A DNA stretch of 24,471 bases from a virus. Of the stretch, positions 1,149 through 21,831 are shown one piece after another. Position numbers and translations under genes: made by a program. The stretch's first letter is position 1. Every line of letters starts with the position of its first letter. The notes beneath the pieces were generated by a model that searched no databases, was not told the DNA's origin, and saw only the letters and a program-made list of their open reading frames with translations. The stretch covers positions 1 to 24,471 of IMG/VR virus record IMGVR_UViG_3300011013_002877, one strand, 5' to 3'.

Positions 1149-3095
1149 TTAAACTATTACCAATCTCTCTTGTATTGGAAATCCCTCAGGTATGTAACTC
1201 AAGTTTAAACGATTGATATACTGTCTATAAAATGGTCCGCTTCTTCCTCTAGCACTTAAGTCATCAACAAAATCGTAAATTTCAGCAGTATTTTTTGAAA
1301 CAAATAATCTAATAGCCCTGCCTAATGATTGTGTTATTGTAGTGTAACTTTTCAATGGACTTGCAAATACGATATTCTTTAACGATTTTATGTTCAAACC
1401 TGTGCTCATCAGCGCGTACCCACTTACAACTATACAATTATTATGTGTTCTAAGGATATCGAATATCTTTTCACGGTCTTTAGGTTTTGTTGCACCTGCT
1501 ACATAAAAGACCTTGTATTCTTCTTGAAATTCAACAGCATGTTTGCCAACGATGTGTTTCTTTTCAACTTTTATACCTGGATTTTTAATGTTTATCAATA
1601 ATGTGAATAAGTCTTGCATATGTTGGATATGCTGGCACAATACAACAGTATTACCGTTTTGTGTAACTTTATCAGATAGTCTTGATATCAAGATGTTTCT
1701 ATTTTTATGTTCTTTTATAAATTGTAGTTGTTTTGTGTAATTTCCAACATGTTTAAAAATAGCTTTATCATCATTATTATACATTAATCGTATAACATTT
1801 ATATTAACAGGTGTAGCTAAACCGCGCTCAATAAGGCCTTGCGTTTTTATATATCTTTTTGGTTTACCTGTACATGCCATGATAGACATTTTTGCTATTT
1901 GGTCTTCCGGTAATGTACCTGTTAATCCAATTCTATATTTTGCATTAGTGCATTTGTAAACAATATCAGCTGCTTTAGTATCTAACTTAAGTTGATGCGT
2001 CTCATCTATTATCACAAAGTCAAAATTTTCAAAACCTTTTTCAATTAACATAGCACTTTGCCAAGTTGTTACAGTTATCTGTTTATCAAAGGCTTTTACT
2101 TTATTGTCACCACCTATTAACCGTATAGACTCGAGAAAATCATCCGACGCATTGTAATCTTTACAATCATTATAGATTTGAGTGGTTAGTGAGACTGAAG
2201 GTACTAATAACATACCTTTTAGATTTTTTGATTTAAAAAATGATAATATACAGTAAATACATGCTGATTTTCCCGAGTTATGATGTATTACACCGTTCTG
2301 TATATATGTTTGAAATTCGTTCTGTACCTCAAAATCTATCCATCGTTGAGACGGAACAATTTCTATACCAATAATTTGTTTAGATTTTTTACCAAATTTA
2401 TCTGTTAAAAAGTCACCAATATTTAGCTCATTAGCAGGTAACCACTCATTGTTAACTAAGAGATAATGTGTATCAGCGCATTTTATACAAGTATCGTCGC
2501 TCAAGTAAAGTTTTCTACCACTGAAATATTTTTCAAATACACGCGAAATGTTATCGTAACCATTAGGGGTTTCAACCTTTATTTTCTGGTTGTTGTTTTT
2601 TAAATATAACAATTCTTCATATGTGATTGTGGTTTTAATTTTACCTTTTGGTGTTAAAAATTTTTTAAGTAATTTATAAGCATCCTCTGATATTTCGACG
2701 TTTATTTCTGACTGTGGATCCAGACAACCGGTCGCGGCCAATGCTATTTGGTTTTTTTTCTGTATAGATTCTACTACTATTTGTTTTTGATAATCATACA
2801 ACTTAAAAGGCATATTTAAATTTTCTATATGTTCAAGAATTTCTTGTTCGCTATATTCCGGGGTTTCTGGTACATCTGTTACAAATGCTAAAAGTCCTGA
2901 AGGTATAATAATACTACTTGCATCACTTGGATCTATAACATAAAAAACTTCAGAATCTGGTTTGAGGCCTCTTTTTATCATAGGATCAAAATAAGCATTT
3001 GGGATTTTAATTGTAAATTTTCTCTTGATTTCTTGAAGTTCTTCTGGCATTCCAGAAATTTTATAGAAAGATTCGTTTATTTTTTGCGTAGTCAA
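1149..3095 (-). CDS. uvsW: UvsW-type SF2 DNA/RNA helicase precursor containing a mini-intein
   Basis: This is a 648-aa precursor. Removing the intein (residues 124-273) leaves about 498 residues, close to T4 UvsW, the ATP-dependent helicase that drives branch migration, unwinds R-loops and shuts off origin-dependent replication. The Q-motif-like segment PFKLYDYQ is at about 96-103. The P-loop is split as AATG (120-123) and SGKS (274-277). The DETH box lies in FVIIDETHQ, followed by GLTGT (motif III) and QSLGRAIR (motif VI). The start is TTG at 3095, with AAAGGA five bases upstream; no in-frame ATG fits better. A 10-bp hairpin lies just upstream. It sits between Hsp20 and the methyltransferase. 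The protein is inactive unless the intein is excised, because the intein interrupts the ATP-binding loop. The identification is confident from the motif set and length. Confidence 0.9.
   Translation of the reverse strand: MTTQKINESFYKISGMPEELQEIKRKFTIKIPNAYFDPMIKRGLKPDSEVFYVIDPSDASSIIIPSGLLAFVTDVPETPEYSEQEILEHIENLNMPFKLYDYQKQIVVESIQKKNQIALAATGCLDPQSEINVEISEDAYKLLKKFLTPKGKIKTTITYEELLYLKNNNQKIKVETPNGYDNISRVFEKYFSGRKLYLSDDTCIKCADTHYLLVNNEWLPANELNIGDFLTDKFGKKSKQIIGIEIVPSQRWIDFEVQNEFQTYIQNGVIHHNSGKSACIYCILSFFKSKNLKGMLLVPSVSLTTQIYNDCKDYNASDDFLESIRLIGGDNKVKAFDKQITVTTWQSAMLIEKGFENFDFVIIDETHQLKLDTKAADIVYKCTNAKYRIGLTGTLPEDQIAKMSIMACTGKPKRYIKTQGLIERGLATPVNINVIRLMYNNDDKAIFKHVGNYTKQLQFIKEHKNRNILISRLSDKVTQNGNTVVLCQHIQHMQDLFTLLINIKNPGIKVEKKHIVGKHAVEFQEEYKVFYVAGATKPKDREKIFDILRTHNNCIVVSGYALMSTGLNIKSLKNIVFASPLKSYTTITQSLGRAIRLFVSKNTAEIYDFVDDLSARGRSGPFYRQYINRLNLSYIPEGFPIQERLVIV
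2277..2726 (-). other. Mini-intein in the UvsW P-loop (150 aa)
   Basis: Residues 124-273 of the UvsW precursor form a complete cis-splicing element. It begins with Cys (CLDPQSEINV, block A), has a block-B-like segment ADTHYLLV, and ends VIHHN followed by Ser, giving the canonical penultimate His, terminal Asn and +1 Ser. Joining the flanks restores AATG-SGKS, a proper Walker A motif. No LAGLIDADG, HNH or other endonuclease domain fits in 150 residues, so this is a mini-intein. Its C-terminal part shares a TP(N/D)GY(D/Q)NI stretch and overall layout with the split intein of PhoH in this window. Confidence 0.9.
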
Positions 3096-3130
3096 ATCAA
3101 TCCTTTAAATCACATTCGGTTAGTGTTTTT

Positions 3131-3157
3131 GAGAGAACTCATGGTAAGAGTTCTCTC
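3131..3157. repeat. Perfect 10-bp inverted repeat (hairpin) between hsp20 and uvsW
   Basis: GAGAGAACTC, a 7-nt loop ATGGTAA, and GAGTTCTCTC form a perfect 10-bp stem. In the minus-strand direction of the flanking genes the stem is followed by A residues, not U, so it is not a classical intrinsic terminator for them. On the plus strand only a short TTT follows. It may instead stabilise or process mRNA, or modulate uvsW translation from the start 36 bases further on. Confidence 0.6.
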
Positions 3158-3183
3158 TTTGAATTAATCAAATAATTAGAATG

Positions 3184-3570
3184 CTATTTTATTTCTAAGT
3201 ATTTGAATTTTGGTTTTACTCTTTTGAATTCAACTGTGAGCAGCCCATTTTTAGCGGTTATTTCACCCAATTCAGTATTTTTAGGTGTCTGAAATTTTCT
3301 TGTAAAATTTCTCATACTGAGGTTTCTTTCAAAATATTGACGTTCTGATGTTTTATCACTGTCGTCATCTTTGGTTTCTGTTTTTTTACCTTCAACAACA
3401 AATAATCCTTCATCATCAAAATATGCTGATAATTCGGATTTGTCAAAACCTGTGACAGCCATTTCTATGAATGTACTATCCCCTTCATTGTAAGTGTTAT
3501 ATGGTGGGTAAAATGAACCACTACTTTTTATTGAAGCTTCCAAGAAGTCTTCTAAATCATTTGTAAACAT
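3184..3570 (-). CDS. Small heat-shock protein, Hsp20/alpha-crystallin family
   Basis: This 128-aa protein belongs to the alpha-crystallin domain family, whose members are ATP-independent chaperones that hold unfolding proteins. The order of beta-strand segments is typical: a core ending in FEVEGKK-like text (LFVVEGKKTE), a Phe-rich RYFERNLSMRNFTRKF stretch, then ITAKNGLLTVEFKR near the C-terminus, the family's 'A-x-x-x-n-G-v-L' motif. I chose ATG 3570 because a near-perfect Shine-Dalgarno (AAGGAGG) lies seven bases upstream. An in-frame ATG at 3639 would add 23 basic residues that do not look like the family. Hsp20 genes are common in T4-like cyanophages and other large marine phages. About 225 bases of non-coding leader precede it. 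Confidence 0.85.
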   Translation of the reverse strand: MFTNDLEDFLEASIKSSGSFYPPYNTYNEGDSTFIEMAVTGFDKSELSAYFDDEGLFVVEGKKTETKDDDSDKTSERQYFERNLSMRNFTRKFQTPKNTELGEITAKNGLLTVEFKRVKPKFKYLEIK

Positions 3571-3795
3571 TGTTTTCCTCCTTAAGTAAAAACGTTTCTG
3601 GGCTTTTGTTTGTTTGTAGCCACAACCTATTCCGACCATTTAGTACCGAAATATATAAATGTCTTACACAATCGACATAGTTTGCTATGTATATTTCCTA
3701 TTTTTAAGTACTCTATCCGTTAACCTCCTTTGTCTTGATTTAACATAACAAATAAATATAAATTTAAATATATAAATCTGTATAAATCTATAACA
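3571..3795 (-). other. 225-base non-coding leader between the TnpB-like remnant and hsp20
   Basis: No credible gene is visible here. Features seen: a very AT-rich proximal third; an orphan AAAGGAGG (minus strand, about 3722-3729) not followed by any usable start codon; a 6-bp hairpin ACATAG-TTTG-CTATGT at 3675-3690; and the strong hsp20 ribosome site at its end. Because it directly follows a TnpB-related C-terminus, it could be a decayed element end or guide-RNA-like region, or an hsp20 regulatory leader. Neither can be shown from sequence alone. Confidence 0.4.
3675..3690. repeat. Short hairpin ACATAG-TTTG-CTATGT
   Basis: A perfect 6-bp inverted repeat with a 4-nt loop. A similar hairpin (CATAG-TT-CTATG, 4285-4296) lies at the other side of the TnpB-like ORF. 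IS200/IS605 elements carry subterminal hairpins at both ends, so the pair may mark remnant element ends. The stems are short and could be chance in AT-rich DNA. Confidence 0.35.
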
Positions 3796-4287
3796 TTATG
3801 TCACAGACGGTAGTATGTTAATCCTACCTGGGTCTAGAATTAATCTAGAATTATCACTCTCACATCTATGTACATTGAATAACAAGCTAGATGGATTAGT
3901 CATGAATTGAGCAGTTAGCTCCCCTAGAGTTATGTAGCCTAATCTCTTTAATTTAGACCACAAGGACCAATTGCTTTTAGTATTGTCATTTACCCACTTA
4001 AATTTATTGTCAGCATGCTCCGCTGCTGACAATAGTGATTTAATAGGTATAGATACTAATGAACCATTGACCCTGATTATTACCTTGGCTTTCTCTTGAA
4101 ACCCGAGACCCCTTCTGCCTATAACTAGAGCAGCACTTAAGTCTTTAGATTTTGAGTCATGACTAAGGTCATATCCATTAAGTAATGCATATTTGAACAA
4201 TCCAATTACAGATGTATATGCTGGATTAATTCTCTTTAGTTTAATGCCATTTCGGGCACACTTACTTTCTAGTAAATCTGAGAACAT
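3796..4287 (-). pseudogene. C-terminal remnant of a TnpB-related (IS200/IS605-type) RuvC nuclease
   Basis: This 163-aa ORF resembles only the C-terminal part of TnpB-related accessory proteins of IS200/IS605 elements. Residues about 19-28 read KRINPAYTSV, the family's conserved stretch after RuvC-II. A RuvC-III-like segment DLSAALVIGRRGLGF follows, equivalent to the D-x-N-A-A-x-N-I-x-x-R-G-L of TnpB, with the catalytic Asp kept. The CxxC zinc finger of true TnpB is absent, as in the TnpB-related branch. The N-terminal wedge, RuvC-I and RuvC-II are missing, and nothing upstream (4288-4342, AT-rich) supplies them. No clear Shine-Dalgarno precedes ATG 4287, which lies in a small hairpin. Base composition is visibly less AT-rich than its neighbours, suggesting import. 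It is likely a decayed insertion; a domesticated short protein is possible. Confidence 0.65.
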
Positions 4288-4333
4288 AGTTCTATGAAAT
4301 TTACTGATGATTTACTTTATAATAATTATAAAG
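4285..4333. repeat. Two inverted repeats upstream of the TnpB-like remnant
   Basis: CATAG-TT-CTATG lies at 4285-4296 and overlaps the ORF start codon. CTTTATAA-TAA-TTATAAAG, a perfect 8-bp stem, lies at 4315-4333. They sit at the truncated side of the TnpB-like gene and may be element-end structures or a terminator/attenuator. The second is pure A/T except one G-C pair, so its stability is low. Confidence 0.35.
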
Positions 4334-4342
4334 AAAGTTTAC

Positions 4343-4537
4343 TTAATTTTTTTCCAAAAAATCAATAATTCTATCTGAAATATTTTTGTCACATTCTTGT
4401 TGAATGTCCATAAGAAAATCTTTGTACTTGTTTAAAGTTTCTTGTGCATCCATTAGGTCAAGTTTTAAATTCTCGACTTTTTGCTTCAGTGGCCTTGTTT
4501 TAACGTCTTTATATCTGTTGTATTGTTTTCTTCTCAT
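4343..4537 (-). CDS. Small basic/coiled-coil protein of unknown function
   Basis: About 64 residues from ATG 4537; a TTG at 4552 would add five residues. Neither start has a good Shine-Dalgarno. The N-terminus is strongly basic (MRRKQYNRYKDVKTR), followed by a heptad-like amphipathic helix (VENLKLDLMDAQETLNKYKD) and an acidic C-terminal helix. It almost abuts the stop of the upstream 923-aa helicase gene, so it may be translationally coupled to it. I do not recognise a family. A small accessory factor of the helicase is a guess from position only. Confidence 0.55.
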   Translation of the reverse strand: MRRKQYNRYKDVKTRPLKQKVENLKLDLMDAQETLNKYKDFLMDIQQECDKNISDRIIDFLEKN

Positions 4538-4554
4538 TTTAAACTGTGCCAAAT

Positions 4555-7326
4555 CTAAAATTGTTTTATGAAACCATAAAATTGTTTTATATTTGGATCA
4601 ACCCTCCATACTTTTTGTGATTTATTTAAAAATTCTTTTTTTTCAAACTCACTCATAAGTGAGATATCTTTTTCGGATGTATTTATTTCTTTAGGACCTC
4701 GTTTATAACCTGCTTCTTTTAATATATATAACAATTTTTTATCAGCATGTATATAATATTGTTTAATCGGTACTTGACCCAGTTTTAACAATCTCGAAAA
4801 AAATACTGTACTCTCATTACGAATCATCGCATCAGATATTTTTGTCTTAATATAAGTCTCATCAACAAATTTTTGTGTAAAATCTAAAAGTACACGGTAG
4901 TTTTTACATTTTGTAATAAAGTTTTTGTCTTTTATACAAATTTTTAAAATTTTTTCTCGTATATTATCAGAAGTATCCGGCAATAATTCATCATTCATCT
5001 GAACTAATGTGTTTAATATCTTTTCTCCAGATAATTCATTATGTTTTGATTTCAATAAAAGTTTTATTTTTTCGGAATCTGATAAATTTAAAAAGTCATT
5101 AATATAAATTTGTTGCATTTCTTCTTTATTTTTTTGAAGTTCTTTACTATATCTAGTTAATATATTACCTTCAAATTTATTCTCTATTATTCGAGGTTCA
5201 TTAAAGAAATGATACTTCATCAGCCAAAACATTGCTTTTTTGTGGTTAAATTCAAGTATGTTTTTAAATGTATCAATTTTAATAGCATTTTTGCCTATTT
5301 TACTTAATCGCTGTGTACCGTAATCATCTACGCTAAATAAAAAATTCTGGTCTATATTTTTGCCAATATTTCCAAGATATTCATCTCTAACAGAATCATA
5401 AGTTGTTTTAACATAATTTGTTCTATCGGAAATATACATGTGTATCTCAGTCGCTTTCCTAGTTCTCTTGATCATTTGGATACTCGAGATAACGTCTGTA
5501 CTCATACTAGTATCATAGTGATAATGCGCATATATATTGTTTAGATTACTAACACCAACTGTTAAGCTTGGACTATAAAGAAACACGTCCCATTTATCAT
5601 GTTCTTCTTCTTTGAATAATTCATATATAAGTTTTTTAGTACTGCCTGGTGTATCAGCAGTTAGTAGAATACATTTTTTTCCGTGTTTTTCAAGCAATCT
5701 TTTTGTGCTTCTTAAAAAGTTCAAAGATGTACCTGATACTGTTATCTTTTGCTGCTTGGCCTTGTGTAACAATGATTGAAAAAAGTAATTCTTGTTTTCA
5801 TAACTATAAAGAATTGTTTTGTCTCTGTTATGATTGTTTAACAAATACACATTAGATGTTTTGTTTTCAAGTAAAAAGTTTTCATATCCTGTCAAAAAAG
5901 CGTCTGCTATTACTAATTTTTTATTGAAAGCACCAAAAAACTTCGCTAAGTTTAAAGAACTATTTCCAAGATTATTACGACTGTGACACATTAGAGAAAT
6001 AAATTCATCCATAATAACTAAATCAAAATTTTTGATATCATACTTCCACAGACTATCAAATTGCACGATAATAGAATCATTTAAATTATATTGGTCTTTA
6101 TTGTATATTTTCATACCGTACTTATTTGCAAAATCAACCGCAACTGATATTCTATTTGTTATGATGAGTGTTCTTAAATCTTGTGCATTTGCTTCATCTA
6201 TTATAGCTTTAATAATTGTTGATTTACCTGTCCCCATTGGTGATTTTATACAATAAAGACCGTCTTTTTCAGAGATAAACTTTTCAATTTCATCCATTCT
6301 ATTAAATTCTTTGCCATCATATGTGCCTCTGACTTTTAAGTACCTTTCATTCGTTTGAATCACTTTTGTACTTGTATTAAAATGCATTAATTCTTTATCG
6401 TAATCAAGTTCAGTGTTAAGTAATTTTTTACCAATTTCTGTTGAGCGTACTGCGTCAAATATGTTTATACTTCTTGTACTATTGAAATGGTGCATTGTGA
6501 AAGGACTATTATTAAACCAAAAATATCCTCCTATAGATTTAGTTTCAGACGGGTGCTTAAACTGTATGGAGCCATTTTCATTAGCTTTCATAGCTTCAAA
6601 TCCCATGGATTTATAAACATTTAGGCAATAATCCTCAATACTATCACCTGTTATGTCGTTTATATTGAATTTTTCAACAATACCAGTTTTATCCCCTTTT
6701 TTAAGATTTGTGTACTCATCTGCTAGTGTGTTTATTCTTCTCTCGAGGCTGCATTTATACAGGTACTTATCTTTGTTCAAAAGAATTTTATTTTTTTGGA
6801 TAGGGGCATTAAATGAAGCTATCCTACCAACTGCTTCATCAATTTCACAGAGGTCTTTTAAATCATAACTGAGATTTGATATTGCATTCTTATAATCGTT
6901 TATACTAATAGGCTCTATAAAAAGAATACCTTTCATATTAAAATTATCTTTATTATTATACGATTTAGACTCACCAAGTATACATTTATACTTGCTGAAA
7001 TATTGGAGAATTAAATCTCTATCTTTAGCAGTACGTACTTTGTCGATGTCTAAAATCATATATGTTATTTCATCTGTACAATAATATTCTAGTGTTTCTT
7101 TTCTTCGATAAGTTCGTATAGGTTCAGGTAATTTTGAAAGGGGTATATTTAATACCCAATAACTTACCAATGTATTAAACATTTCTACGTTGTTATAACC
7201 ATCTATAACATAATTTTTAAAAATAAATGTTTTATCATAGTAAGGTGACCAAGCACTTTTTTGATTTTTTTCACTTGGTCGTTGAGCGTTGAATACGGTT
7301 AAGTTGTGTTTTTTTACTTCAATCAA
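4555..7326 (-). CDS. Origin-binding-type SF2 helicase with N-terminal primase-like (AEP) region
   Basis: A 923-aa protein. The N-terminal region contains MILDIDK (Asp93, Asp95), resembling the hhhDhD metal-binding motif of archaeo-eukaryotic primases, and then a GESKSYNN...KGILFIEP segment. A helicase core follows: Walker A SPMGTGKST at 362-370, TLIITNRISV (motif Ia), a DEAD-like box VIMDEF at about 437-442, SLTVGVS at about 587-593 and QMIKRTRK at about 617-624 (motif VI). This order resembles the herpesvirus UL9-type replication-origin-binding helicases. The C-terminal 270 residues are helical and unrecognised. The start is TTG 7326 with AAAGGA five bases upstream. It probably helps initiate or restart phage DNA replication. 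The primase-like assignment is the weaker part, since the second AEP motif is not clear. Confidence 0.7.
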   Translation of the reverse strand: MIEVKKHNLTVFNAQRPSEKNQKSAWSPYYDKTFIFKNYVIDGYNNVEMFNTLVSYWVLNIPLSKLPEPIRTYRRKETLEYYCTDEITYMILDIDKVRTAKDRDLILQYFSKYKCILGESKSYNNKDNFNMKGILFIEPISINDYKNAISNLSYDLKDLCEIDEAVGRIASFNAPIQKNKILLNKDKYLYKCSLERRINTLADEYTNLKKGDKTGIVEKFNINDITGDSIEDYCLNVYKSMGFEAMKANENGSIQFKHPSETKSIGGYFWFNNSPFTMHHFNSTRSINIFDAVRSTEIGKKLLNTELDYDKELMHFNTSTKVIQTNERYLKVRGTYDGKEFNRMDEIEKFISEKDGLYCIKSPMGTGKSTIIKAIIDEANAQDLRTLIITNRISVAVDFANKYGMKIYNKDQYNLNDSIIVQFDSLWKYDIKNFDLVIMDEFISLMCHSRNNLGNSSLNLAKFFGAFNKKLVIADAFLTGYENFLLENKTSNVYLLNNHNRDKTILYSYENKNYFFQSLLHKAKQQKITVSGTSLNFLRSTKRLLEKHGKKCILLTADTPGSTKKLIYELFKEEEHDKWDVFLYSPSLTVGVSNLNNIYAHYHYDTSMSTDVISSIQMIKRTRKATEIHMYISDRTNYVKTTYDSVRDEYLGNIGKNIDQNFLFSVDDYGTQRLSKIGKNAIKIDTFKNILEFNHKKAMFWLMKYHFFNEPRIIENKFEGNILTRYSKELQKNKEEMQQIYINDFLNLSDSEKIKLLLKSKHNELSGEKILNTLVQMNDELLPDTSDNIREKILKICIKDKNFITKCKNYRVLLDFTQKFVDETYIKTKISDAMIRNESTVFFSRLLKLGQVPIKQYYIHADKKLLYILKEAGYKRGPKEINTSEKDISLMSEFEKKEFLNKSQKVWRVDPNIKQFYGFIKQF

Positions 7327-7458: not shown

Positions 7459-8337
7459 TTAAGATATATCAAATTTATACAACATTTTTTCGAGAGGGTC
7501 TGATGTGCTTAAAGCATTTTCAGTAATAGCATAACTGTTAAAGTTAAAGACTGCATTTTGTCCATTTTTTGGATTGACCGCTGTTTTTATTGTGTGAAAA
7601 TACGGACTCATAATCAAAGATGACTGACCAGGTATATCAGATTTTATGCCAACGTATGCAGTCGAGCTAGTATTATCAGGATTTAAGTAAAATTTTGTTC
7701 TTGAGTTAGAACCTAAAAACAGTCCCCTTTCAGTTTCATTCTCGATTACTCTGTTTGATATCGCTAATACACTAGCAGCTGCTTTTGTTGGAAGTATAAC
7801 AAATGAGTCGAGTGATTTAAATGAGTGTGAATTTATCTTCATTATTAATTCCGCAGCTCTTTGTTGTACTTCAAATGTAGTGGTTTCTGCATTACCCTGA
7901 TCTGTTAATGACAGGGACGGTGTTGCAGTGCACATAGTATTTAATTTTGATATTAATTTAATATTTTCATTTGTTGAACTGATTCCGCTAAATACTTTAC
8001 CGAGATACTCAGTTATTGATTTACCATATTGTCTTTGAAGGTCTTGTAGTGTTTCGGTTGTGAATCCAGTATCTTCAATTGGGTCTTCACCTACAACGAC
8101 TTCGTTTCGGAAAAGTTTTATCTTTTTTTTACCAGGAAATGCCGGGTCGTCAACATAAGCTAACGCAAATGTCGCCGCCGTTGGGCCATGTACTGGGGCC
8201 ACTTCACATACTTGATACGCCAGAGAATTATAATACTTTTGTTCAATCATAGTATTTACAATTTCATCTGTATTATCTATTTGAATGTCTTCTGCTAATA
8301 TCTTTTTTGAGTTTTCTTTAAGGAAATCTATATTCAT
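7459..8337 (-). CDS. Short T4 gp23/gp24-type capsid protein
   Basis: A 292-aa protein with the landmarks of the T4 major-capsid family (HK97 fold). AYQVCEVAPVHGPTAATFAL at about 40-59 corresponds to the T4 'V-x-P-M-T-G-P-T-G-x-x-F-A-L' block. Near the C-terminus, AYVGIKSD, then LIMSPYF and AVNPKNGQNAVFNFNSYAI match T4's 'VGYKG...YYAPYV...DPKNFQPVMGFKTRYGI' segments. T4 gp23 has 521 and gp24 has 427 residues, so this is a much-shortened form lacking insertions. A possible prohead-protease site (ILAE, residues 13-16) is present. ATG 8337 has AGTAGG upstream and an exact late-promoter box 19 nt before it. It lies outside any visible head gene cluster. It could be the phage's main capsid protein or a second, vertex-type paralogue. 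Confidence 0.75.
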   Translation of the reverse strand: MNIDFLKENSKKILAEDIQIDNTDEIVNTMIEQKYYNSLAYQVCEVAPVHGPTAATFALAYVDDPAFPGKKKIKLFRNEVVVGEDPIEDTGFTTETLQDLQRQYGKSITEYLGKVFSGISSTNENIKLISKLNTMCTATPSLSLTDQGNAETTTFEVQQRAAELIMKINSHSFKSLDSFVILPTKAAASVLAISNRVIENETERGLFLGSNSRTKFYLNPDNTSSTAYVGIKSDIPGQSSLIMSPYFHTIKTAVNPKNGQNAVFNFNSYAITENALSTSDPLEKMLYKFDIS

Positions 8338-8356
8338 CGGTTACCTACTTTTTAAA

Positions 8357-8364
8357 TATTTATA
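8357..8364 (-). promoter_or_regulatory. T4-type late promoter of the capsid-like gene
   Basis: An exact TATAAATA on the minus strand, 19 nt upstream of ATG 8337, with a Shine-Dalgarno (AGTAGG) between. T4 late promoters need only this -10-like box plus the gp55/gp33/gp45 machinery. A late promoter fits a virion gene. Confidence 0.75.
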
Positions 8365-8394
8365 TTTCTTATACAATGTATTTGAGCGAGTTTG

Positions 8395-9063
8395 TTAAGA
8401 GTTGTTAAAACACATGTCTTTATAACCACACCAATCACATAATTTTTGTGTTTTTTTCTCAAAAATTTCATCGTTTTCAATATCTCTTATACTGTGTATA
8501 AGTTCTTTTTTGTACTCCTGTATGTATTTTCTTTCAAATACTATAGAATTATCCAAATTATGTTCAACATATATAAACATTGCTTTAATTTTGTCAATAT
8601 CAGGATTCTTGTAAAAAAGATAAAGTGCATAAAATAACAACTGATTAAAATCCTGATATTTTATGTCTTTGTACTTACCTGTTTTCCAATCAACAACAAC
8701 TATACCGTTATCAACGTATGCGTAGTAGTCTATGTATCCACGAAATATTGTTCCTTCTTTATAACTTACTGGTAGTAGTTCGTCGTTAAAACCAATAGCA
8801 GTCTCCGAAAAATGTTTAATATCTAAAAGAGATTTATATTTAGTTTCTAAGAAAGTTTCAAATACTTCTCTATATTCCGACACGAGTGAATTCGTACTTT
8901 TAGCTGGGTAACTTTCTAACATACTGTGAATACATGTTCCCTTTAACAAAGGAGTCATATCATTGATAGGCTCTTTTATTTTTTGTATGTATTTGTACTT
9001 AAATTTTCTCGCACACTGTTTATATGTGGAAATTTTTGAAAAACTGTACGGCCCGTATTTCAT
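8395..9063 (-). CDS. PD-(D/E)XK nuclease, Cas4/RecB-like with iron-sulfur cysteines
   Basis: A 222-aa protein. It has the N-terminal SFSKISTYKQCARKFKYKY signature, GTCIHSMLE with His46, the metal site GYIDYY (Asp112) and VVVDWKTGK (Asp125, Lys127), and a QLLFYALYL helix with Gln141 (QxxxY-type). Cysteines at 17, 209, 212 and 218 have the spacing of the 4Fe-4S cluster of Cas4/AddB nucleases. It probably acts as a single-stranded DNA exonuclease in recombination or end processing. ATG 9063 directly follows the stop of the preceding gene (TAAATG), and no separate ribosome site is seen, so translational coupling is likely. There is no CRISPR array or other cas gene here, so it should be read as a phage recombination nuclease rather than an adaptation protein. 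Confidence 0.85.
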   Translation of the reverse strand: MKYGPYSFSKISTYKQCARKFKYKYIQKIKEPINDMTPLLKGTCIHSMLESYPAKSTNSLVSEYREVFETFLETKYKSLLDIKHFSETAIGFNDELLPVSYKEGTIFRGYIDYYAYVDNGIVVVDWKTGKYKDIKYQDFNQLLFYALYLFYKNPDIDKIKAMFIYVEHNLDNSIVFERKYIQEYKKELIHSIRDIENDEIFEKKTQKLCDWCGYKDMCFNNS

Positions 9064-9354
9064 TTATGATTTCGATACTAAAATAGCGATTTGGTCTTGA
9101 ATGTCTTGGTTGGCTTCCATTTTTTCAAGGATAATCTCTTCTTCTAATATTGAACCTGGGTCTTTTTTAGCTTTTGATTTTAAGGTATTGATAACTCTAT
9201 TTACTGCGTTAACAGCAATACCTTGTTCTTTGTAGTTTTCCTTGATTTCTTTAATTTCTTCTTGTATTGCTTTTATTTGTATTTGTTTTTCAAGAATTGC
9301 GAGTGCAAAATCATAACTTGTTTTCATAACTTCTTCTGTGCTTCTAATTTCCAT
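9064..9354 (-). CDS. Small helical protein, possibly GapR/DUF2312-like DNA-binding
   Basis: 96 residues from ATG 9354, behind AAAGGAATAATCA. It is almost entirely alpha-helical and coiled-coil in character. The pattern of an E/K-rich helix (IKAIQEEIKEIKENYKEQGI) followed by VNAVNRVINTLKSK vaguely resembles GapR-type (DUF2312) nucleoid proteins, in which a coiled coil precedes a short DNA-contacting helix. I am not confident of that family. It lies between thioredoxin and the Cas4-like nuclease, with no intergenic space on the nuclease side. The shared transcript suggests a DNA-metabolism accessory role. Confidence 0.55.
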   Translation of the reverse strand: MEIRSTEEVMKTSYDFALAILEKQIQIKAIQEEIKEIKENYKEQGIAVNAVNRVINTLKSKAKKDPGSILEEEIILEKMEANQDIQDQIAILVSKS

Positions 9355-9365
9355 TGATTATTCCT

Positions 9366-9680
9366 TTAAATATTAATTTCATCGATAAGCGCTTGTTTTG
9401 ATACTGCGCCGACTATTTTGTGTTTTATTTCACCGTCTTTAAATATAAAAAATGTTGGAATCGCCCGAGTGTCATATTTCACAGCCAAATCATGGTCTTG
9501 TTCAATATCTACCTCACAAATTTTTACATTAATTCCACCGTACATTTCGGCTAATTCGTTCAAAACTGGAGTCATTTGTCTACATGGTCCACACCAAGAC
9601 GCGCCGAACTTTACTAGTGTAATGCCTGTTGATATCACTGTGTCAAAATCTTTAGATGTTAACATTTTACACTTAACCAT
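9366..9680 (-). CDS. Thioredoxin
   Basis: A 104-aa cytosolic thioredoxin with the redox active site SWCGPCRQM at about residues 28-36, the buried Asp-equivalent strand VKFGAS, the cis-proline segment AIPTFFIFKDG and the closing GAVSKQAL helix. Length and order are those of a canonical single-domain thioredoxin. It could donate electrons to a phage ribonucleotide reductase or act as a protein-folding or polymerase accessory; none of these partners is in the window. ATG 9680 follows AAAAGGAATAATTA and overlaps the end of the upstream gene by 8 bases. Confidence 0.95.
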   Translation of the reverse strand: MVKCKMLTSKDFDTVISTGITLVKFGASWCGPCRQMTPVLNELAEMYGGINVKICEVDIEQDHDLAVKYDTRAIPTFFIFKDGEIKHKIVGAVSKQALIDEINI

Positions 9681-10095
9681 TAATTATTCCTTTTATTTCG
9701 TTAACATAATCGTTGTATTCGTCTAAATCATTAAAATCCGCGTATATAAATTTAGACGTTAACCTGTGTTCTTTATTATATCCCGCACTAGTAACACTAT
9801 GTGAAAGATTAAAGATTACTCTTTTTAAACTATCTACAAACTTAATAACTGATATGTGATTTTTGTTTATAAGAACACCATTCGCTTTTATGAAATTCTT
9901 TTTCACATAATCATGATTTAAGATATTGGTTATATTGTTGTGACTGTATGCATAATAGCTGATCAGCCTCTTTTCTCCGTTACTGTTAATCTCAGCGACG
10001 CAACTTAAATCCAACGCCAATTTATCTGGCAAAATATTAATACTCGAAACATGTTCGAGATTAACTAATTTGTCATCTGCTTCTACAAATATCAT
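9673..10095 (-). CDS. Unknown protein with two related beta-rich halves
   Basis: About 140 residues. Two in-frame ATGs lie six bases apart. The second (10095) is preferred because AAGG then has normal spacing; the first would touch the ribosome site. The sequence shows an internal similarity: LVNLEHVSSINILPDKLALD near the N-terminus and VLINKNHISVIKFVDSLKRV in the second half, each a 'v-N-x-x-H/n-I/V-S-x-I-x' beta pattern. This suggests a duplicated small beta unit. No catalytic motif or membrane segment is seen, and no family is recognised. It overlaps the thioredoxin start and follows primase. Confidence 0.6.
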   Translation of the reverse strand: MIFVEADDKLVNLEHVSSINILPDKLALDLSCVAEINSNGEKRLISYYAYSHNNITNILNHDYVKKNFIKANGVLINKNHISVIKFVDSLKRVIFNLSHSVTSAGYNKEHRLTSKFIYADFNDLDEYNDYVNEIKGIING

Positions 10096-10141: not shown

Positions 10142-11224
10142 TTAAAGTTTGAGTTTTAAGCGAGTTATTGCTGATATTCCTTTATATATATTAGATTTAA
10201 TCATATGTGATATATCTAATTCTGGGTGATTCAGTTTTAACTCGTTAAAATCTTTTTCTTTATAATTGTTTGGCATAATAAAGACTTTATAACCTAACTT
10301 AGCATAATTAATACTTGTCTGAATACCAGTTTTATCGTTATCTAAGCAAAACACAGGATCCTTTAACTCTTTTAGTCTATCCTCTGATAATTTTGCACCT
10401 AGATTTGCAATGATATTATCTAGACCGGTACTGATACCATCAAATATTGCTTCAAATATATAAGTTGTTTTTATTTTATCTATACTAAACCAATTCCACA
10501 CTTTATACCCTGTTGTGCTAACAAAAGTAATGAATTTTTTTTCTTTTATACTTCGACTATAAAAACCATACATTAGATTATTTTTATATAGTGGAATAAC
10601 TAAAAAATCTTTTATTTTATATGTTGTGTTATTTATAGATATGTCAGTATTTGCAACAAACCAATTATCCTGAGGGCTTATTTTTCTATTTTTTAAATAT
10701 TTTATGTATTCATCGGTAAGGGGTGAAAAAAATTGTGATAAGTCATACAATAATGGTGTTTTTAAATCCTCTGTTGTTTCAGGTTTTGCAATCTCAGAAT
10801 CTGTAAAATCAAAAGTTTCAGACTTGGCAATCTCAGAATCTGTAAAATCAAAAGTTTCAGACTTGGCAATCTCAGAATCTGTAAAATCAAAAGTTTTATT
10901 TAATTCTGAGATAGGTTTAAGAGTTTTTAGCGAAGTCATTTTTTGTTGAAAAACTTCTCTCTTATATTGTGGTAAAAGATTGGGGTAAAAATCTCGAAGA
11001 AATGTGTACATTGTTTTACCTTCACAAGGGCACCCTGCGTTAAAACATGATACAAAATCAGTATCCGCACCATCTTTAGTATAAAGGTTTAAACGTTTAA
11101 CATTTTTTCTAGTTTTAGAGTCACCACAAATAGGGCATCTGCATGCTACTACATTATCTGTTTCTTTGTATTCACTTGCATTAGTAGCGAGTTTAAAATA
11201 CTTGACTGATCTAGGGTCTAACAT
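10142..11224 (-). CDS. DNA primase, T4 gp61/DnaG type
   Basis: A 360-aa primase that lays down RNA primers for lagging-strand synthesis, in T4 as partner of the gp41 helicase (not in this window). It has an N-terminal zinc-binding domain (CRCPICGDS, about 28-36, with a second cysteine set CFNAGCPCEG at 60-69). The Toprim fold follows, with YIFEAIFDG (Glu258) and FCLDNDKTG (Asp295, Asp297) for metal binding, then KDFNE near 324-328. Length is close to T4 gp61 (342 aa). The linker between zinc and catalytic domains holds three identical or near-identical 13-residue units (FDFTDSEIAKSET), which explains the extra length. ATG 11224 has AAAAAGG upstream with six-base spacing. Confidence 0.9.
   Translation of the reverse strand: MLDPRSVKYFKLATNASEYKETDNVVACRCPICGDSKTRKNVKRLNLYTKDGADTDFVSCFNAGCPCEGKTMYTFLRDFYPNLLPQYKREVFQQKMTSLKTLKPISELNKTFDFTDSEIAKSETFDFTDSEIAKSETFDFTDSEIAKPETTEDLKTPLLYDLSQFFSPLTDEYIKYLKNRKISPQDNWFVANTDISINNTTYKIKDFLVIPLYKNNLMYGFYSRSIKEKKFITFVSTTGYKVWNWFSIDKIKTTYIFEAIFDGISTGLDNIIANLGAKLSEDRLKELKDPVFCLDNDKTGIQTSINYAKLGYKVFIMPNNYKEKDFNELKLNHPELDISHMIKSNIYKGISAITRLKLKL
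10778..10894. repeat. 39-bp x 3 in-frame tandem repeat in primase
   Basis: Three adjacent copies with exact 39-bp period encode TFDFTDSEIAKSE-type units (primase residues 111-149). Copies differ only at a few bases at the ends, implying a recent expansion. The repeats lie in the linker and are acidic. Copy number may vary between strains. Confidence 0.9.
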
Positions 11225-13529: not shown

Positions 13530-13645
13530 GTTTTTTCCTTTTTTAGTCTCTTTGGACTTTTTCTATAATTCAAATCTGGACTATATTGTCGAACTGTTCA
13601 CTAAACCGTTTAACGTCTCGAGGGACGATATCATTTATATTTATA
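13530..13645 (-). promoter_or_regulatory. gp32 leader with candidate late promoter and structured RNA
   Basis: On the minus strand an exact TATAAATA box (13645-13638) lies in the last codons of the endonuclease gene, 108 nt before the gp32 ATG. The leader then holds a short CGTC-CCTCGA-GACG hairpin, further self-complementary pieces (GTTAAACGGTTTAGTGAAC, GACAATATAGTC) and finally an A-rich, unstructured ribosome site. T4 gp32 represses its own translation by binding from a leader pseudoknot into an unstructured A/U-rich ribosome site. The layout here is compatible with that, but the fold is not proven. Confidence 0.45.
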
Positions 13646-15277
13646 TATTCCACCTCCACAATCGTAAATTTTTCGGTATTTTCTGGGATTCTCGGGTTTT
13701 TCTTTTAACTCAAGTTTAGGTGTGTTAGGTAAAAAATAAAAAAGTTTAGGCTTAACATAGTGACTAAACTTGAACCCTAGTTTTTCATATTCTGAGCCAT
13801 CCGACCATCTTCTATCAGCATAACTAGTGATTTCATCTGGCTTAAAGGTATTTTTGAAAAAATCAAATATTTTTGAAAATTCAGCTACAATACCTAATTT
13901 ATTACACATTCTTGTTAGTTCAAAATTATTGTTTAAATATCTAAAAGTCATAACTTGAATTAAGTCATCCAATCTATATAAACCAATATGTATATCTGAT
14001 TCTACATAACCCATGAGATGATTATTTTCAAGAAATGTTTCAGCTTCCTTGGAAGATATCTCTTTCACAGTACATTTATCGACGTTTGTTGGTGATATTA
14101 TACCCAAATTTTGATTAATAATTTGTTTCCAAATATCTTTTTTATAAATCCACTCGTTTTCAAATATATGTAGCAAATGAATACCTTTGTTTTCACACAT
14201 TTCTGTTTTTATGAGATGTTTATTAGGATCTTCTTTAGATGCGTTATCAAATTTTTCATATTTTGATTCACCAAACGAGTGGTACATTAACCCATCATAT
14301 TCTATTGCGAGATTACCAACCCTCAAGTCAAGTTCTAAGGGATATATAGACCTTCTGTCATTTTGTATTCCATCTCCAATAAATCTATAAATCTCTTCTT
14401 CTGCTTTCGATCTGATAGGTTTACATCTTGGACACCCTGTTCCTTTTAAGTGATTATTAGGAGTTACTCTAAAATCACCATGCTCTTTACATGTGATATA
14501 GACGTCGTCACAACTTCTTTTGTACACAACATTATCATATGTGTAAGTATCACCAAATATTTTTCTTGATTTCTCGATGAAAAGTTCAGTCGTGTATTTA
14601 TTATCATGCATTTCTGTTCTTCTCTCTTTATCACACATTTTACACGCGTGTTTACCTGTTATAAAACTGGCTTTTGCAATTTTATTTTGAGTACAATGTT
14701 TGGTACACACATAAGATACTTTACCATCTTTGATTTCAAGGTCATCATAACACTCTGGGTAGTTGAATTCTTTTCGAATTTTTATAATCCGTTCTTTTTC
14801 TTTTGTGTATCTTTCTAGTTTATAACACTCTGGACACCCTTTACCTTTTTTGTGTTTGTATGCTTTTATATTAAAATCACCATGTATTTTACATGTGACT
14901 ATGATGTAGTTATCACGACCAGTGTAAACAGTCTTTTCGTATGAATATTTTAGATGCTCGAAATTACCAGAATCTTTCAAATATTTTAAGTTATCTGATG
15001 AACTTTTAGTTGTATTTAAACCATGTACTTCACGGCACTGTCGGATAAACTCGTCAGTGCTCATAAGCATATTGTAATCGTCTCTGCGAAAACCACACTT
15101 TGGACAACCGTAGTAAATATGGTCATTTGGACGTTGCCAAAAAGAACCATGTTCCGGGCAAATTATCTCTATCTTTGTTTGTGAATTGACATATATTGCA
15201 TTAGAATAGTCGTATTTGTTACCATGTTTTTCTTTAAATTTTACTACAGCGTCTTCAAGTGTATATTTTTTCGCCAT
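13631..15277 (-). CDS. Free-standing Vsr-like (EDxHD) homing endonuclease with zinc-ribbon repeats
   Basis: A 548-aa protein. The N-terminal half carries four related DNA-binding-type zinc ribbons of the DUF723 kind: C40-P-E-H43...C58-P-K-C61; C129...H132...C148...C151; a divergent one around C191-C215; and C263...H266...C282...C285. The nuclease domain begins at about 292 (AEEEIYRFI), with PLELDLRV (Asp317), LAIEYDGLMYHSF (Glu326, Asp328, His333) and LLHIFENEW, the pattern of very-short-patch-repair-like EDxHD homing endonucleases, often annotated Hef-like in phages. The C-terminal region (about 400-548) is the family's extra domain. It sits 12 bases after the clamp gene with only a poor ribosome site, and ends in the gp32 leader. 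Such a gene inserted between essential genes fits homing. Confidence 0.85.
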   Translation of the reverse strand: MAKKYTLEDAVVKFKEKHGNKYDYSNAIYVNSQTKIEIICPEHGSFWQRPNDHIYYGCPKCGFRRDDYNMLMSTDEFIRQCREVHGLNTTKSSSDNLKYLKDSGNFEHLKYSYEKTVYTGRDNYIIVTCKIHGDFNIKAYKHKKGKGCPECYKLERYTKEKERIIKIRKEFNYPECYDDLEIKDGKVSYVCTKHCTQNKIAKASFITGKHACKMCDKERRTEMHDNKYTTELFIEKSRKIFGDTYTYDNVVYKRSCDDVYITCKEHGDFRVTPNNHLKGTGCPRCKPIRSKAEEEIYRFIGDGIQNDRRSIYPLELDLRVGNLAIEYDGLMYHSFGESKYEKFDNASKEDPNKHLIKTEMCENKGIHLLHIFENEWIYKKDIWKQIINQNLGIISPTNVDKCTVKEISSKEAETFLENNHLMGYVESDIHIGLYRLDDLIQVMTFRYLNNNFELTRMCNKLGIVAEFSKIFDFFKNTFKPDEITSYADRRWSDGSEYEKLGFKFSHYVKPKLFYFLPNTPKLELKEKPENPRKYRKIYDCGGGIYKYK

Positions 15278-19191: not shown

Positions 19192-20589
19192 TTACTTAAT
19201 TTTTTCATCACCAAATTCGTCTGCCCACTCAGCAATAGCTGACCTCACTGTCTTATCTAAAACAAACCCAGCGACATTAACGTTTTTATTATTTTTACCA
19301 ATCTTTCTCATTAAGTACGTCAACGCGTTATTGTATTTATTAAGGTATGCAGTATCTATTTGTTTCGTACTACCTAATATAAAAACTTTGCAATTTTCAG
19401 ATATCCTAGTTAGTATTGTTTTTACACTGGATATTGAGTTATTTTGACAATTTTTACTCAAAATAGATATTAAGTCGCCAAGCATGTAATTGTGATTATT
19501 ATCCACACTAGGAGTGTATATAAATCCATCATACGGTATTTTTCGAATAGAATTAATTCTAACTCCTTCTAATCTGTCGCCATTACTCGTAAAAAGCAAG
19601 TCATTTTCTTTGATGTTTTTAACAAATTTGTAAGAATTATTTACGAATAATCTGTGACTTCCTGTTACTTGAATTGTTTGAAATACACTATCAAAATCAA
19701 ATTCTATTTCGTACATTTCTTCGTCCGTCTCATCTATACTTTGTCTTTTTATAGAATTGATTTTTTCAAAAGTAAATCTTTTTAATTTATGAGAATAACT
19801 CTTCACATACACATTTTCAGTTCGTATCAAATCATATATATCTTTTATACTCATTTTACCTTTAGTGGTTTCTAAAATTTGTGTTTCAGAGAGACACTCA
19901 TCTAAAATAACTATCGCGTTTCTTATATTTGACCCTCTCAAATGCCCTTCGTACTTAAATTGTATTTGATACTTGTTTATAAAATCGTCTAATTTATTGT
20001 TTAATTCCTCTTGGGTTAATTTTGTTTTTCTATTATTATATTTTTTTTCTATTATATATTCTAAATTAGAGTACAGCGGTGCTAGGAATCCTTGTATTTT
20101 TTCTTCTAAACTTCCTTTTAAAAAACCAAGTTCTTCTGAATCTGAGATAACAGTTTTTCGAATATACACGATCTTATCGTACTTATCATGATGGGTATCA
20201 ATTAGTCTCATTGCAGCACTTAATGCTACTAAAGTTTTTCCTGAATTATGAGATATTATATTATCACTATAATAACGATGATTTGGGTGCAAAACTTCTA
20301 AATCATATGTGTCATGAACACCTATGTTTATAATTTGGAGGACTTTAAAACCACCGATCGTTACATCACCTTCTTTTAAATCAATTGATTTTACCCAGCC
20401 AGTTTGCATTTGAAATAAATGGTCTACTGAGCATTCAATTATATCGCCGTTCGAAAAAGAAACAGATAAACATTCTTTGTTTGGCTTGTGATAAACTTCA
20501 CCTATGTTTTGATAACCGTCTGGTGTACTTATTTGTATATCTTCGAAATTATCTTTGTAAAACTGCAGATCTTTTACATTAATTTTCAT
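19192..20589 (-). CDS. phoH: PhoH ATPase C-half: split-intein C-fragment, PhoH domain, second mini-intein
   Basis: 465 residues. Residues 1-115 are the C-terminal part of a split intein, ending IISHN. Ser116 then begins SGKTLVALSAAM, the second half of the PhoH Walker A motif. The PhoH domain continues (IVYIRKTV; GFLKGSLEEKIQ; HLRGSNIRNAIVILDE, Walker B). It is interrupted by a 149-aa mini-intein (232-380) and resumes CQNNSISSVKTILTRI, then FILGSTKQID and the C-terminus. The ORF has its own ATG (20589) and Shine-Dalgarno (AAAAAGG, six-base spacing), 54 bases after the stop of the N-half. It cannot make a functional ATPase alone. After trans-splicing to the N-half and loss of the second intein, PhoH would be about 463 aa, normal for PIN-PhoH proteins. 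Confidence 0.9.
   Translation of the reverse strand: MKINVKDLQFYKDNFEDIQISTPDGYQNIGEVYHKPNKECLSVSFSNGDIIECSVDHLFQMQTGWVKSIDLKEGDVTIGGFKVLQIINIGVHDTYDLEVLHPNHRYYSDNIISHNSGKTLVALSAAMRLIDTHHDKYDKIVYIRKTVISDSEELGFLKGSLEEKIQGFLAPLYSNLEYIIEKKYNNRKTKLTQEELNNKLDDFINKYQIQFKYEGHLRGSNIRNAIVILDECLSETQILETTKGKMSIKDIYDLIRTENVYVKSYSHKLKRFTFEKINSIKRQSIDETDEEMYEIEFDFDSVFQTIQVTGSHRLFVNNSYKFVKNIKENDLLFTSNGDRLEGVRINSIRKIPYDGFIYTPSVDNNHNYMLGDLISILSKNCQNNSISSVKTILTRISENCKVFILGSTKQIDTAYLNKYNNALTYLMRKIGKNNKNVNVAGFVLDKTVRSAIAEWADEFGDEKIK
19450..19896 (-). other. Contiguous mini-intein in the PhoH Walker B box (149 aa)
   Basis: Residues 232-380 of the C-half begin CLSETQILETTKGKMSIKDI (block A) and contain VTGSHRLFV (block B with the T-x-x-H-like His), GFIYTPSVDNNHNYML (block F) and LISILSKN before Cys381. 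Removal yields VILDE-CQNNS, the PhoH Walker B and following Q-N. The penultimate residue is Lys rather than the usual His, an uncommon but tolerated variant in some inteins. No endonuclease domain fits. Confidence 0.88.
20245..20589 (-). other. C-terminal fragment of the PhoH split intein (115 aa)
   Basis: Residues 1-115 of the C-half ORF hold the parts of an intein normally found after block A: STPDGYQNIG, block B CSVDHLF, then DTYDLEVLHPNHRYY (block F) and NIISHN before Ser (block G, with penultimate His, terminal Asn and +1 Ser). It lacks an initiating Cys1 of its own, which is supplied by the preceding ORF. It aligns by eye with the C-terminal two-thirds of the UvsW mini-intein. Confidence 0.88.
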
Positions 20590-20643
20590 TTTTTACCTTT
20601 TTTATAACTTTATTTAGTCTTCTTGAAGTTCTTAAACACGGAA

Positions 20644-21831
20644 TCAAAAATCTTGACATATAATTTTTTGTTTTTGTTTAATAGAATCTACATCATTATT
20701 CTCAAATATTTTAACATATTCAAGTCTTGCTTTCTTTAAAAAGTTCAAAGACCATTTCAATGATTTATTCGTTCCTAACCAGTATCTTAATTGTAAATAT
20801 TTTGATTTGTATTTCTTATCATCTTCAAATACTATTTTTTGTTCATGATTTAACTTCGTGTATAGCAGTACTGTGCTGTTAAAGTCAGCTAAATTATATT
20901 TTTGTGTTTGGGTAGTTCGTATAAGATTTTTTTCACAAAGTTGTTTAAGACTTTTCTTATCGATACCAAATAAATTTTTCACTTCTGATGATGTTATATA
21001 TTTTTCAGTAAATTTGATGTCTATTTGAGTACCTGGAAGTGTGCAACCAGCTGGTGAATCACTAACTACGACGTCGTAGTAATCATCCATAAATTGGGAT
21101 ACTAATACTTTTTGTCCCATGTTTTGAGGTGTAATTTCTTGTTTTGAAATTAATTTATCGTCTATTTGTACAAATAAGTTACCTGTTCTGTAATAAAAGA
21201 AAGGTTTACCATTCTGATCTGTTATTTTAATATGTTGAGCAGTTTTGGGTATGTCTTTAGAAAATATATCAAAAACATTGTACTCATGAGCAGGATTTTC
21301 TAGTGTAAGTTCGCCCGACAGTACTGCATCTTTATCTTCACTAACATTAAAAGATTGTACTTCAACTCCTTCTGCGAGTGCACGATTTTTAGCCATTATA
21401 TCTAGGCTAATAAATTTTACATTTGAATTTTCTGTTTGCATATCTCGGGCTATCTCAATGATTTTTCTATCATTGATAATACTTCTTTCAAAATCACCGT
21501 TATTTGAAACATATTTCTTTTTGGAAACTACGTTGATATAAGCTACTTTACCATTTAAAAAAGCCCTGGCTGAAACTGTGACCATTTTTTTATTAGAAGC
21601 TCTTTCGACATGAAGTATTTCTGCCTCGTTATATATCCGACCAAATTGTCTCGCTTGGTAGTTAATCTCCAAATACCCGCTCTTTTTAGTATCCAATTCG
21701 TCTAATACCGTTTCAGGTAAAACAATTAGGTTTTCACCACCATCAGACAATGTAAATATATTCTCAACATCATTTAATATAATGTTCGTGTCGAGAACAT
21801 AAATTTTTTTAAATCTGGTTTTTCTTCTCAA
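20644..21831 (-). CDS. phoH: PhoH N-half: PIN domain, half a P-loop, split-intein N-fragment
   Basis: 395 residues. A PIN ribonuclease-type domain opens the protein (YVLDTNIILND, Asp14; LDELD near 43-47; KFISLDIMAKNRA, Asp144), followed by the linker of PIN-PhoH proteins up to VVSDSPAG (255-262), the first half of the Walker A motif. From Cys263 the sequence switches to an intein start (CTLPGTQIDIKF) and then to a 115-residue extension that looks like a winged helix-turn-helix (YITSSEVKNLFGIDKKSLKQ) plus a basic helical tail. The start is TTG 21831 with AAGGAAAATC upstream. An exact late-promoter box lies 17 nt before it. The stop is a genuine TGA followed by further stops. PIN-PhoH proteins are RNA-acting ATPases of uncertain role, common in phages. 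Confidence 0.88.
   Translation of the reverse strand: MRRKTRFKKIYVLDTNIILNDVENIFTLSDGGENLIVLPETVLDELDTKKSGYLEINYQARQFGRIYNEAEILHVERASNKKMVTVSARAFLNGKVAYINVVSKKKYVSNNGDFERSIINDRKIIEIARDMQTENSNVKFISLDIMAKNRALAEGVEVQSFNVSEDKDAVLSGELTLENPAHEYNVFDIFSKDIPKTAQHIKITDQNGKPFFYYRTGNLFVQIDDKLISKQEITPQNMGQKVLVSQFMDDYYDVVVSDSPAGCTLPGTQIDIKFTEKYITSSEVKNLFGIDKKSLKQLCEKNLIRTTQTQKYNLADFNSTVLLYTKLNHEQKIVFEDDKKYKSKYLQLRYWLGTNKSLKWSLNFLKKARLEYVKIFENNDVDSIKQKQKIICQDF
20647..21045 (-). other. N-terminal fragment of the PhoH split intein with HTH-like extension
   Basis: Residues 263-395 (133 aa) of the N-half. Only the first roughly 15 residues are recognisable intein (block A, Cys1), which makes this an atypically early split. 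The following 43 or so residues match the pattern of MerR/excisionase-like helix-turn-helix domains (S-S-E-V-K-N-L-F-G-I-D-K-K-S-L-K...I-R...Y-N-L-A-D-F). The rest is basic and helical. The extension may be a leftover DNA-binding part of a lost endonuclease or may help the halves associate. Confidence 0.75.

What the first reader, a model, noticed from the sequence alone, without database searches (positions are those of the whole stretch)
20647..21000. Split-intein N-fragment carries a helix-turn-helix-like extension
After block A the N-half continues for about 115 residues instead of stopping. About 43 of them have the spacing of MerR/excisionase HTH domains (S-S-E-V-K-N-L-F-G-I-D-K-K-S-L-K), followed by a basic helical tail. 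Typical short N-inteins have nothing like this. It could be the DNA-binding remnant of a homing endonuclease that once filled the intein, or a dimerisation/association module for the two halves.
Basis: partly seen in the sequence, partly recalled or inferred. Interest (0 to 1): 0.7.

Follow-up and report, generated by a model that had tools for sequence, protein, structure and literature searches.

The report
Split intein carrying homing-endonuclease remnant
In this phage the first half of a split, self-splicing insert in the phoH gene ends in about 118 extra amino acids that are the leftover front end of a gene-copying DNA-cutting enzyme, which a related phage still carries whole and fused at the same place.

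Summary
The phoH P-loop carries an early-split intein. Its N-fragment (12-15 residues needed) runs on for about 118 more residues before a stop, and a complete C-fragment starts 54 nt later. The extension is no part of the HINT fold: 23 unsplit relatives leave only 17-71 residues at that point, and 49 of 50 split relatives stop 15-56 residues after Cys1. The 50th, in a syntenic phage (L009), explains it. There the same phoH N-intein runs in frame into a 384-residue tail. The window's extension aligns to residues 1-126 of that tail (38% identity), which continues through repeat modules shared with free-standing homing endonucleases to a C-terminal GIY-YIG nuclease. A third locus (L106, clamp-loader gene) has the same fused region, also lacking the nuclease. 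The window therefore holds the N-terminal, probably target-binding, part of a homing endonuclease fused to the N-intein, with about 250 codons lost. The HTH label is plausible but weak: Pfam HTH_17 is below cut-off, a villin headpiece scores better in PDB, and both AlphaFold models failed. Nothing supports an association module. This is a new variant of the known split-intein plus homing-endonuclease arrangement.

The parts
21046..21831 (-). N-extein: PIN domain and N-terminal part of phage PhoH, ending ...SDSPAG
   Evidence: Pfam PIN_4 E 3.6e-19; phrog_2765 PhoH; 63% identical to L009
21001..21045 (-). N-intein core CTLPGTQIDIKFTEK (block A, Cys1; functional length 12-15 aa inferred)
   Evidence: alignment with IntN of split and unsplit relatives, 15-56 and 17-71 aa
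20647..21000 (-). C-terminal extension of the N-fragment: truncated N-terminal region of a fused homing endonuclease
   Evidence: 38% identical to L009 endonuclease fusion over 127 columns, pairwise E 2e-27; to L106 26%, E 7e-12
20911..21000 (-). HTH_17-like segment YITSSEVKNLFGIDKKSLKQLCEKNLIRTT (weak)
   Evidence: only HTH_17 match in the window's six frames, E 0.003, 13.2 bits, below cut-off 27; phrog_11967 E 1.1e-5 at 20923-21018
20692..20820 (-). conserved block DKKYKSKYLQLRYWL...IFEN shared by all three members, across two different host genes
   Evidence: alignment A8: D76 K77 K78 Y79 S81 K82 Y83 L84 W89 invariant
20590..20643 (-). 54-nt gap between the N-half's stop (stop codon 20644-20646) and IntC ATG; no endonuclease gene
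   Evidence: ORF list; in L009 the two ORFs overlap by 8 nt
20245..20589 (-). C-intein, 115 aa, with block B histidine, block F and terminal HN, Ser+1
19195..20244 (-). C-extein PhoH, starting SGKT; itself interrupted by a second, unsplit mini-intein at 19450-19896
   Evidence: Pfam PhoH E 3.2e-28, Intein_splicing E 3.9e-10; coordinates

Best explanation
The window's phoH gene is cut at its P-loop codons (PAG|SGKT) by an atypically split intein with a very short N-fragment. In the lineage of this phage a homing endonuclease reading frame became continuous with the N-intein, giving N-extein + N-intein + endonuclease (N-terminal recognition region, repeat modules, C-terminal GIY-YIG nuclease) in one polypeptide, followed by the C-intein + C-extein gene. 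A relative (L009) still has this. In the window about 250 codons (repeat modules and nuclease) are gone and only the first ~118 residues of the endonuclease remain on the N-intein. Expected working, inferred and not shown: the two precursors associate through the intein halves, splice to PhoH, and release the short N-intein with its endonuclease stub. In L009 that by-product would be the active endonuclease that copies the element into intein-less phoH; in the window it would be a nuclease-dead, perhaps still DNA-binding, fragment. Shown by sequence: homology to the fused endonuclease, absence of the nuclease in the window, intact intein motifs, existence of intein-less alleles. Inferred: splicing, DNA binding, the direction of change (loss in the window).
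For: (1) L009 N-half ORF 2948-4993 (681 aa): PIN, then Cys1 and a 384-aa tail; window residues 1-123 align to tail residues 1-126 at 38% identity, E 2e-27. (2) The L009 tail ends in a nuclease: T5orf172 24.7 bits, over its cut-off of 20; GIY-YIG E 3.8e-4, just below its cut-off. Its middle matches 14 free-standing endonucleases, hhalign probability 99.2, E 8e-20, and Campylobacter phage F379 'putative intron-associated endonuclease', which lies between the halves of a split terminase gene. (3) L106, a clamp-loader gene (phrog_168 E 1.4e-62), has the same N-intein + extension running into the first repeat module, then stops; 30% identity to L009, E 1.8e-19. (4) No more of the endonuclease was found in the window: with the full L009 tail as query, the extension was the only window match at E <= 0.001. 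(5) N-to-C gaps are 998-1469 nt in 37 of 50 split loci (most with an endonuclease-like ORF); 12 of 50 have gaps of 26-242 nt like the window's 54, so absence of the endonuclease is common; L077 keeps only a C-terminal nuclease piece. (6) The extension evolves about twice as fast at non-synonymous sites as its surroundings: dN 0.66 against 0.29 (PIN) and 0.31 (IntC). (7) 12 of 12 other PhoH relatives found have an uninterrupted P-loop.
Against: Only three members of the fused form with this extension are known (window, L009, L106), so the direction (loss in the window rather than gain in L009) rests on the wide occurrence of the downstream modules. The first ~150 residues of the L009 endonuclease do not match the N-termini of other endonucleases (hhalign E 0.019, probability 2.5; no match to F379), so that they are the recognition domain is argued from position and total length (about 370-385 aa in both), not from homology. 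dS is near saturation, so the rate contrast is rough. The frame is still open, which neutral decay would not keep for long.
Confidence: 0.85

Rival explanations
1. The extension is a domain that belongs to the N-intein itself (it helps the halves associate, or blocks premature cleavage), and in L009 an endonuclease was added behind it later.
For: It is kept open in the window and in L106, both without a nuclease, and the block DKKYKSKYL is conserved across two different host genes.
Against: 49 of 50 split relatives have no such domain. In L106 the extension runs straight into an endonuclease repeat module in the same frame. The extension is less conserved than the C-intein (37% against 60% identity).
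Confidence: 0.1
2. The remnant has been kept for a new job: a nuclease-free DNA-binding protein released by splicing, which sits on the P-loop site and shields it from, or competes with, active endonucleases, or regulates phoH.
For: Weak HTH_17 and phrog_11967 matches; open frame of 118 codons; dN/dS below 1, roughly 0.37 with dS near saturation; two nuclease-less members.
Against: The substitution rates cover the time when the enzyme may still have been whole. The HTH-like part is the fastest-evolving piece (dN 0.81). The fold was not confirmed.
Confidence: 0.15
3. The stop is a sequencing or assembly error and the complete endonuclease is there.
For: The window is a virus record of 24,471 bases without independent copies.
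Against: Only 54 nt separate the stop from the C-intein, too short for the missing ~250 codons. No other piece of the endonuclease was found in the window.
Confidence: 0.03

Closest known systems
Atypically (S1) split inteins such as VidaL (16-aa N-fragment)
   Same: Split right after the first strands of the intein; C-intein of about 115 aa. L027 has N-intein CLPKEAVVQIRLTKKG, which I recall as VidaL's; PMC13014065 (passages) gives VidaL 16 aa and an S1 split.
   Different: The N-fragment here does not stop but carries ~118 residues of an endonuclease.
'Fractured genes' (Dassa et al. 2009; paper not held, known here from reference lists and recall)
   Same: Split intein plus endonuclease at the split point; most split relatives found here have that layout.
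   Different: In L009 the endonuclease is in frame with the N-intein, not a separate gene; in the window most of it is gone.
AceL NrdHF split class 3 intein with an intervening GIY-YIG gene (PMC7891396, passages)
   Same: Phage-like split intein with a GIY-YIG nuclease between the halves.
   Different: Separate gene, and canonical split site (98 + 48 aa).
Vibrio phage 1.244.A terminase gene (L006)
   Same: N-half ORF 529-2490 runs past an apparent N-intein (CVWGETKI...) into a GIY-YIG domain over the Pfam cut-off; the C-intein ORF overlaps its end by 11 nt.
   Different: Different host gene; no counterpart of the window's extension. That it is the same arrangement is my reading; the record does not annotate an intein.

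Membership tests
Split intein, atypical short N-fragment | Cys1, block B histidine, block F, terminal HN, nucleophile at +1 | tested here: met
   Window C1, H57, D96, H114-N115, S+1 conserved with relatives
Split intein, atypical short N-fragment | N-fragment of 15-35 aa | tested here: not met
   133 aa from Cys1 to stop; range from PMC13014065
Split intein, atypical short N-fragment | trans-splices | not testable with these tools
   needs expression
Fractured gene (split intein with free-standing endonuclease between halves) | endonuclease gene between the halves | tested here: not met
   54-nt gap in the window; met in most split relatives
GIY-YIG homing endonuclease | GIY-YIG nuclease domain | tested here: not met
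   No Pfam hit in P0002; found in the homologous L009 protein
GIY-YIG homing endonuclease | homology to the N-terminal region of a fused GIY-YIG endonuclease | tested here: met
HTH_17 / MerR-type HTH | score over the curated cut-off (27 bits) | tested here: not met
   13.2-14.1 bits
HTH_17 / MerR-type HTH | HTH fold in a confident model | tested here: inconclusive
   pLDDT 36 and 38; helices predicted at 20-26 and 30-38

The most novel reading that the evidence does not exclude
Trans-splicing here releases a useful by-product: a nuclease-free, site-specific DNA-binding fragment, domesticated from an endonuclease that was fused to the N-intein, which occupies P-loop coding sites and protects phoH from invading endonucleases of co-infecting phages, so that protein splicing also makes an immunity factor.
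Probability: 0.1. Interest if true: 0.8.

Novelty: new variant of a known kind. Interest (0 to 1): 0.5.

Why it matters
Split inteins with a free-standing endonuclease gene between the halves, and unsplit inteins with an inserted endonuclease, are both known. An endonuclease fused to the free end of a short N-intein is a third arrangement that could link them, and the three members show full (L009) and truncated (L106, window) states. It suggests that the S1 split end naturally tolerates a cargo of 100-370 residues, which matters to users of VidaL-type inteins, and it gives a testable case of what happens to an element after its mobility enzyme is lost.

Tried and rejected
Direct searches with the extension alone found nothing further in IMG/VR, in phage GenBank by tblastn at E <= 1, or in GTDB species genomes; in IMG/VR the two-sequence profile found only the L009 contig, the three-sequence profile only the L009 and L106 contigs, and a codon pattern for DKKYxxKYL(x4)W four stretches, two of which are these contigs and two unrelated. 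A first search with the whole C-half found nothing in IMG/VR. PDB by sequence gave nothing useful for the window alone, and for the profiles a villin headpiece (E 0.07, then 0.009) and a transcriptional regulator (E 0.1); I count the villin hit against a confident HTH claim. AlphaFold on the window alone and with L009 gave pLDDT 36 and 38; I did not run fold searches on such models. Integral part of HINT: rejected, since 23 unsplit relatives have only 17-71 residues between Cys1 and the point where the C-intein match starts. Readers should know that its N-halves were found with a hand-made pattern for the residues before Cys1; 4 of 77 loci gave no N-half and were left out, and the 50 split loci collapse to 37 distinct ones.

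Full report
What is there. The window is a 24,471-base virus record. On the minus strand, ORF 20644-21831 encodes a PIN domain and the front of a phage PhoH (Pfam PIN_4 E 3.6e-19) up to ...SDSPAG, then Cys1; 133 residues run from Cys1 to the stop. The next ORF, 19192-20589, starts 54 nt later with a 115-aa C-intein ending in HN, followed by SGKT..., the rest of the PhoH P-loop and ATPase. PhoH relatives without the intein read uninterrupted across the same point (12 of 12 loci other than L009; in L096 a frame break lies before it).

Not part of the intein fold. An IMG/VR scan with an alignment of four C-inteins gave 77 loci. By script, 23 are unsplit with 17-71 residues from Cys1 to the start of the C-intein match, 50 are split (37 distinct), and 4 show no N-half. 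In 49 of 50 split loci the N-half stops 15-56 residues after Cys1. The exception is L009 with 384. N-to-C gaps are 998-1469 nt in 37 loci, in most of which I read an endonuclease-like ORF, and 26-242 nt in 12 loci. The window resembles the latter, but with a 133-residue N-tail.

The relative that explains it. L009 (an 18.6-kb contig) is syntenic around phoH: the gene upstream and several downstream correspond by eye to window genes. Its N-half ORF (681 aa) goes through Cys1 into a 384-aa tail, and its C-half ORF overlaps by 8 nt. Window residues 1-123 align to tail residues 1-126 at 38% identity, E 2e-27 pairwise. The extein is 63% identical. The tail continues with repeat modules that match 14 free-standing endonucleases (hhalign probability 99.2) and ends in a T5orf172/GIY-YIG domain over the Pfam cut-off for T5orf172. 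The same modules and nuclease occur in a gene annotated as endonuclease between the halves of a terminase gene in Campylobacter phage F379.

A third member. L106, a clamp-loader gene (phrog_168 E 1.4e-62), was found through its C-intein. Its N-half runs through CVLPGTT... into a region hit by the window/L009 profile (E 5.8e-13; pairwise 30% to L009, 26% to the window), reaches the first repeat module, and stops. A DUF285 gene follows where the rest of the endonuclease would be. The end of the window's frame (IKQKQKIICQDF) lines up with L106 IKESLLRICFDA inside that reading frame, as expected of a truncation.

Rates. Nei-Gojobori estimates, window against L009: PIN dN 0.29, dS 1.86; C-intein 0.31, 1.56; extension 0.66, 1.75; its HTH-like part 0.81, 1.30. 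dS is near saturation; I use only the contrast in dN. The extension is less constrained than the intein but looks to have been under protein-level constraint for much of its history.

Is it an HTH? The segment YITSSEVKNLFGIDKKSLKQLCEKNL has the spacing of MerR/excisionase domains (my recollection of the motif). HTH_17 is its best Pfam match when excised (E 0.056) and the only such match in the window's six frames (E 0.003), but at about half the curated cut-off. phrog_11967 hits the same place in the window and in L009 and nowhere in 9 other phage records, but its function is unknown. Against: a villin headpiece is the best PDB profile hit (E 0.009), L106 gives no HTH hit, and the AlphaFold models are unusable. 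I put HTH at somewhat better than even.

Mechanism. Most likely the window shows an element that has lost its mobility enzyme: an N-intein with the stump of a fused endonuclease. Splicing should still restore PhoH, since the intein motifs are intact, and would discard the stump with the N-intein. Whether the stump still binds DNA is open.

Literature. Searches of the held open library turned up free-standing GIY-YIG between intein halves (AceL NrdHF, PMC7891396, passages), the S1/S2 split sites (PMC13014065, passages), and a 2006 statement that GIY-YIG enzymes were then unknown in inteins (PMC1564403, passage). None of the listings or passages I saw describes an endonuclease fused in frame to the N-fragment of a split intein; the 2009 'fractured genes' paper could not be read. 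Vibrio phage 1.244.A appears to be another such fusion, in the terminase gene.

Noticed in passing
window 19450-19896 (-): Second, unsplit mini-intein of 149 aa in the same phoH gene at the Walker B motif (DE|C...N|CQNN), penultimate residue K instead of H. Campylobacter phage CPt10 has an intein at the same site split around an endonuclease gene and annotated as a pseudogene.
   Followed up: partly
window 2277-2726 (-): Unsplit 150-aa intein at the P-loop of a UvsW-like helicase, so all three inteins seen in the window lie in ATPase motifs.
   Followed up: partly
window 13631-15277 (-): Free-standing Hef/HNH-like homing endonuclease gene (phrog_559 E 4.5e-98, phrog_3339 E 1e-59); L009 has a related one at 8166-9911.
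   Followed up: partly
L002 / L010, L021, L069: C-intein ORFs with about 60-75 extra N-terminal residues before the intein match, the mirror image of the window's N-half extension.
   Followed up: no
L077:4136-4875: Split terminase intein in which only a C-terminal nuclease piece of the intervening endonuclease survives (72 aa), the opposite remnant to the window's.
   Followed up: no
L106:2046-2783: DUF285 (BspA-like) repeat gene lying inside a split intein locus where the endonuclease C-terminus should be.
   Followed up: no
window 10776-10896: About three copies of a 39-bp tandem repeat, in frame (TFDFTDSEIAKSE x3), in a primase-like ORF 10142-11224.
   Followed up: no
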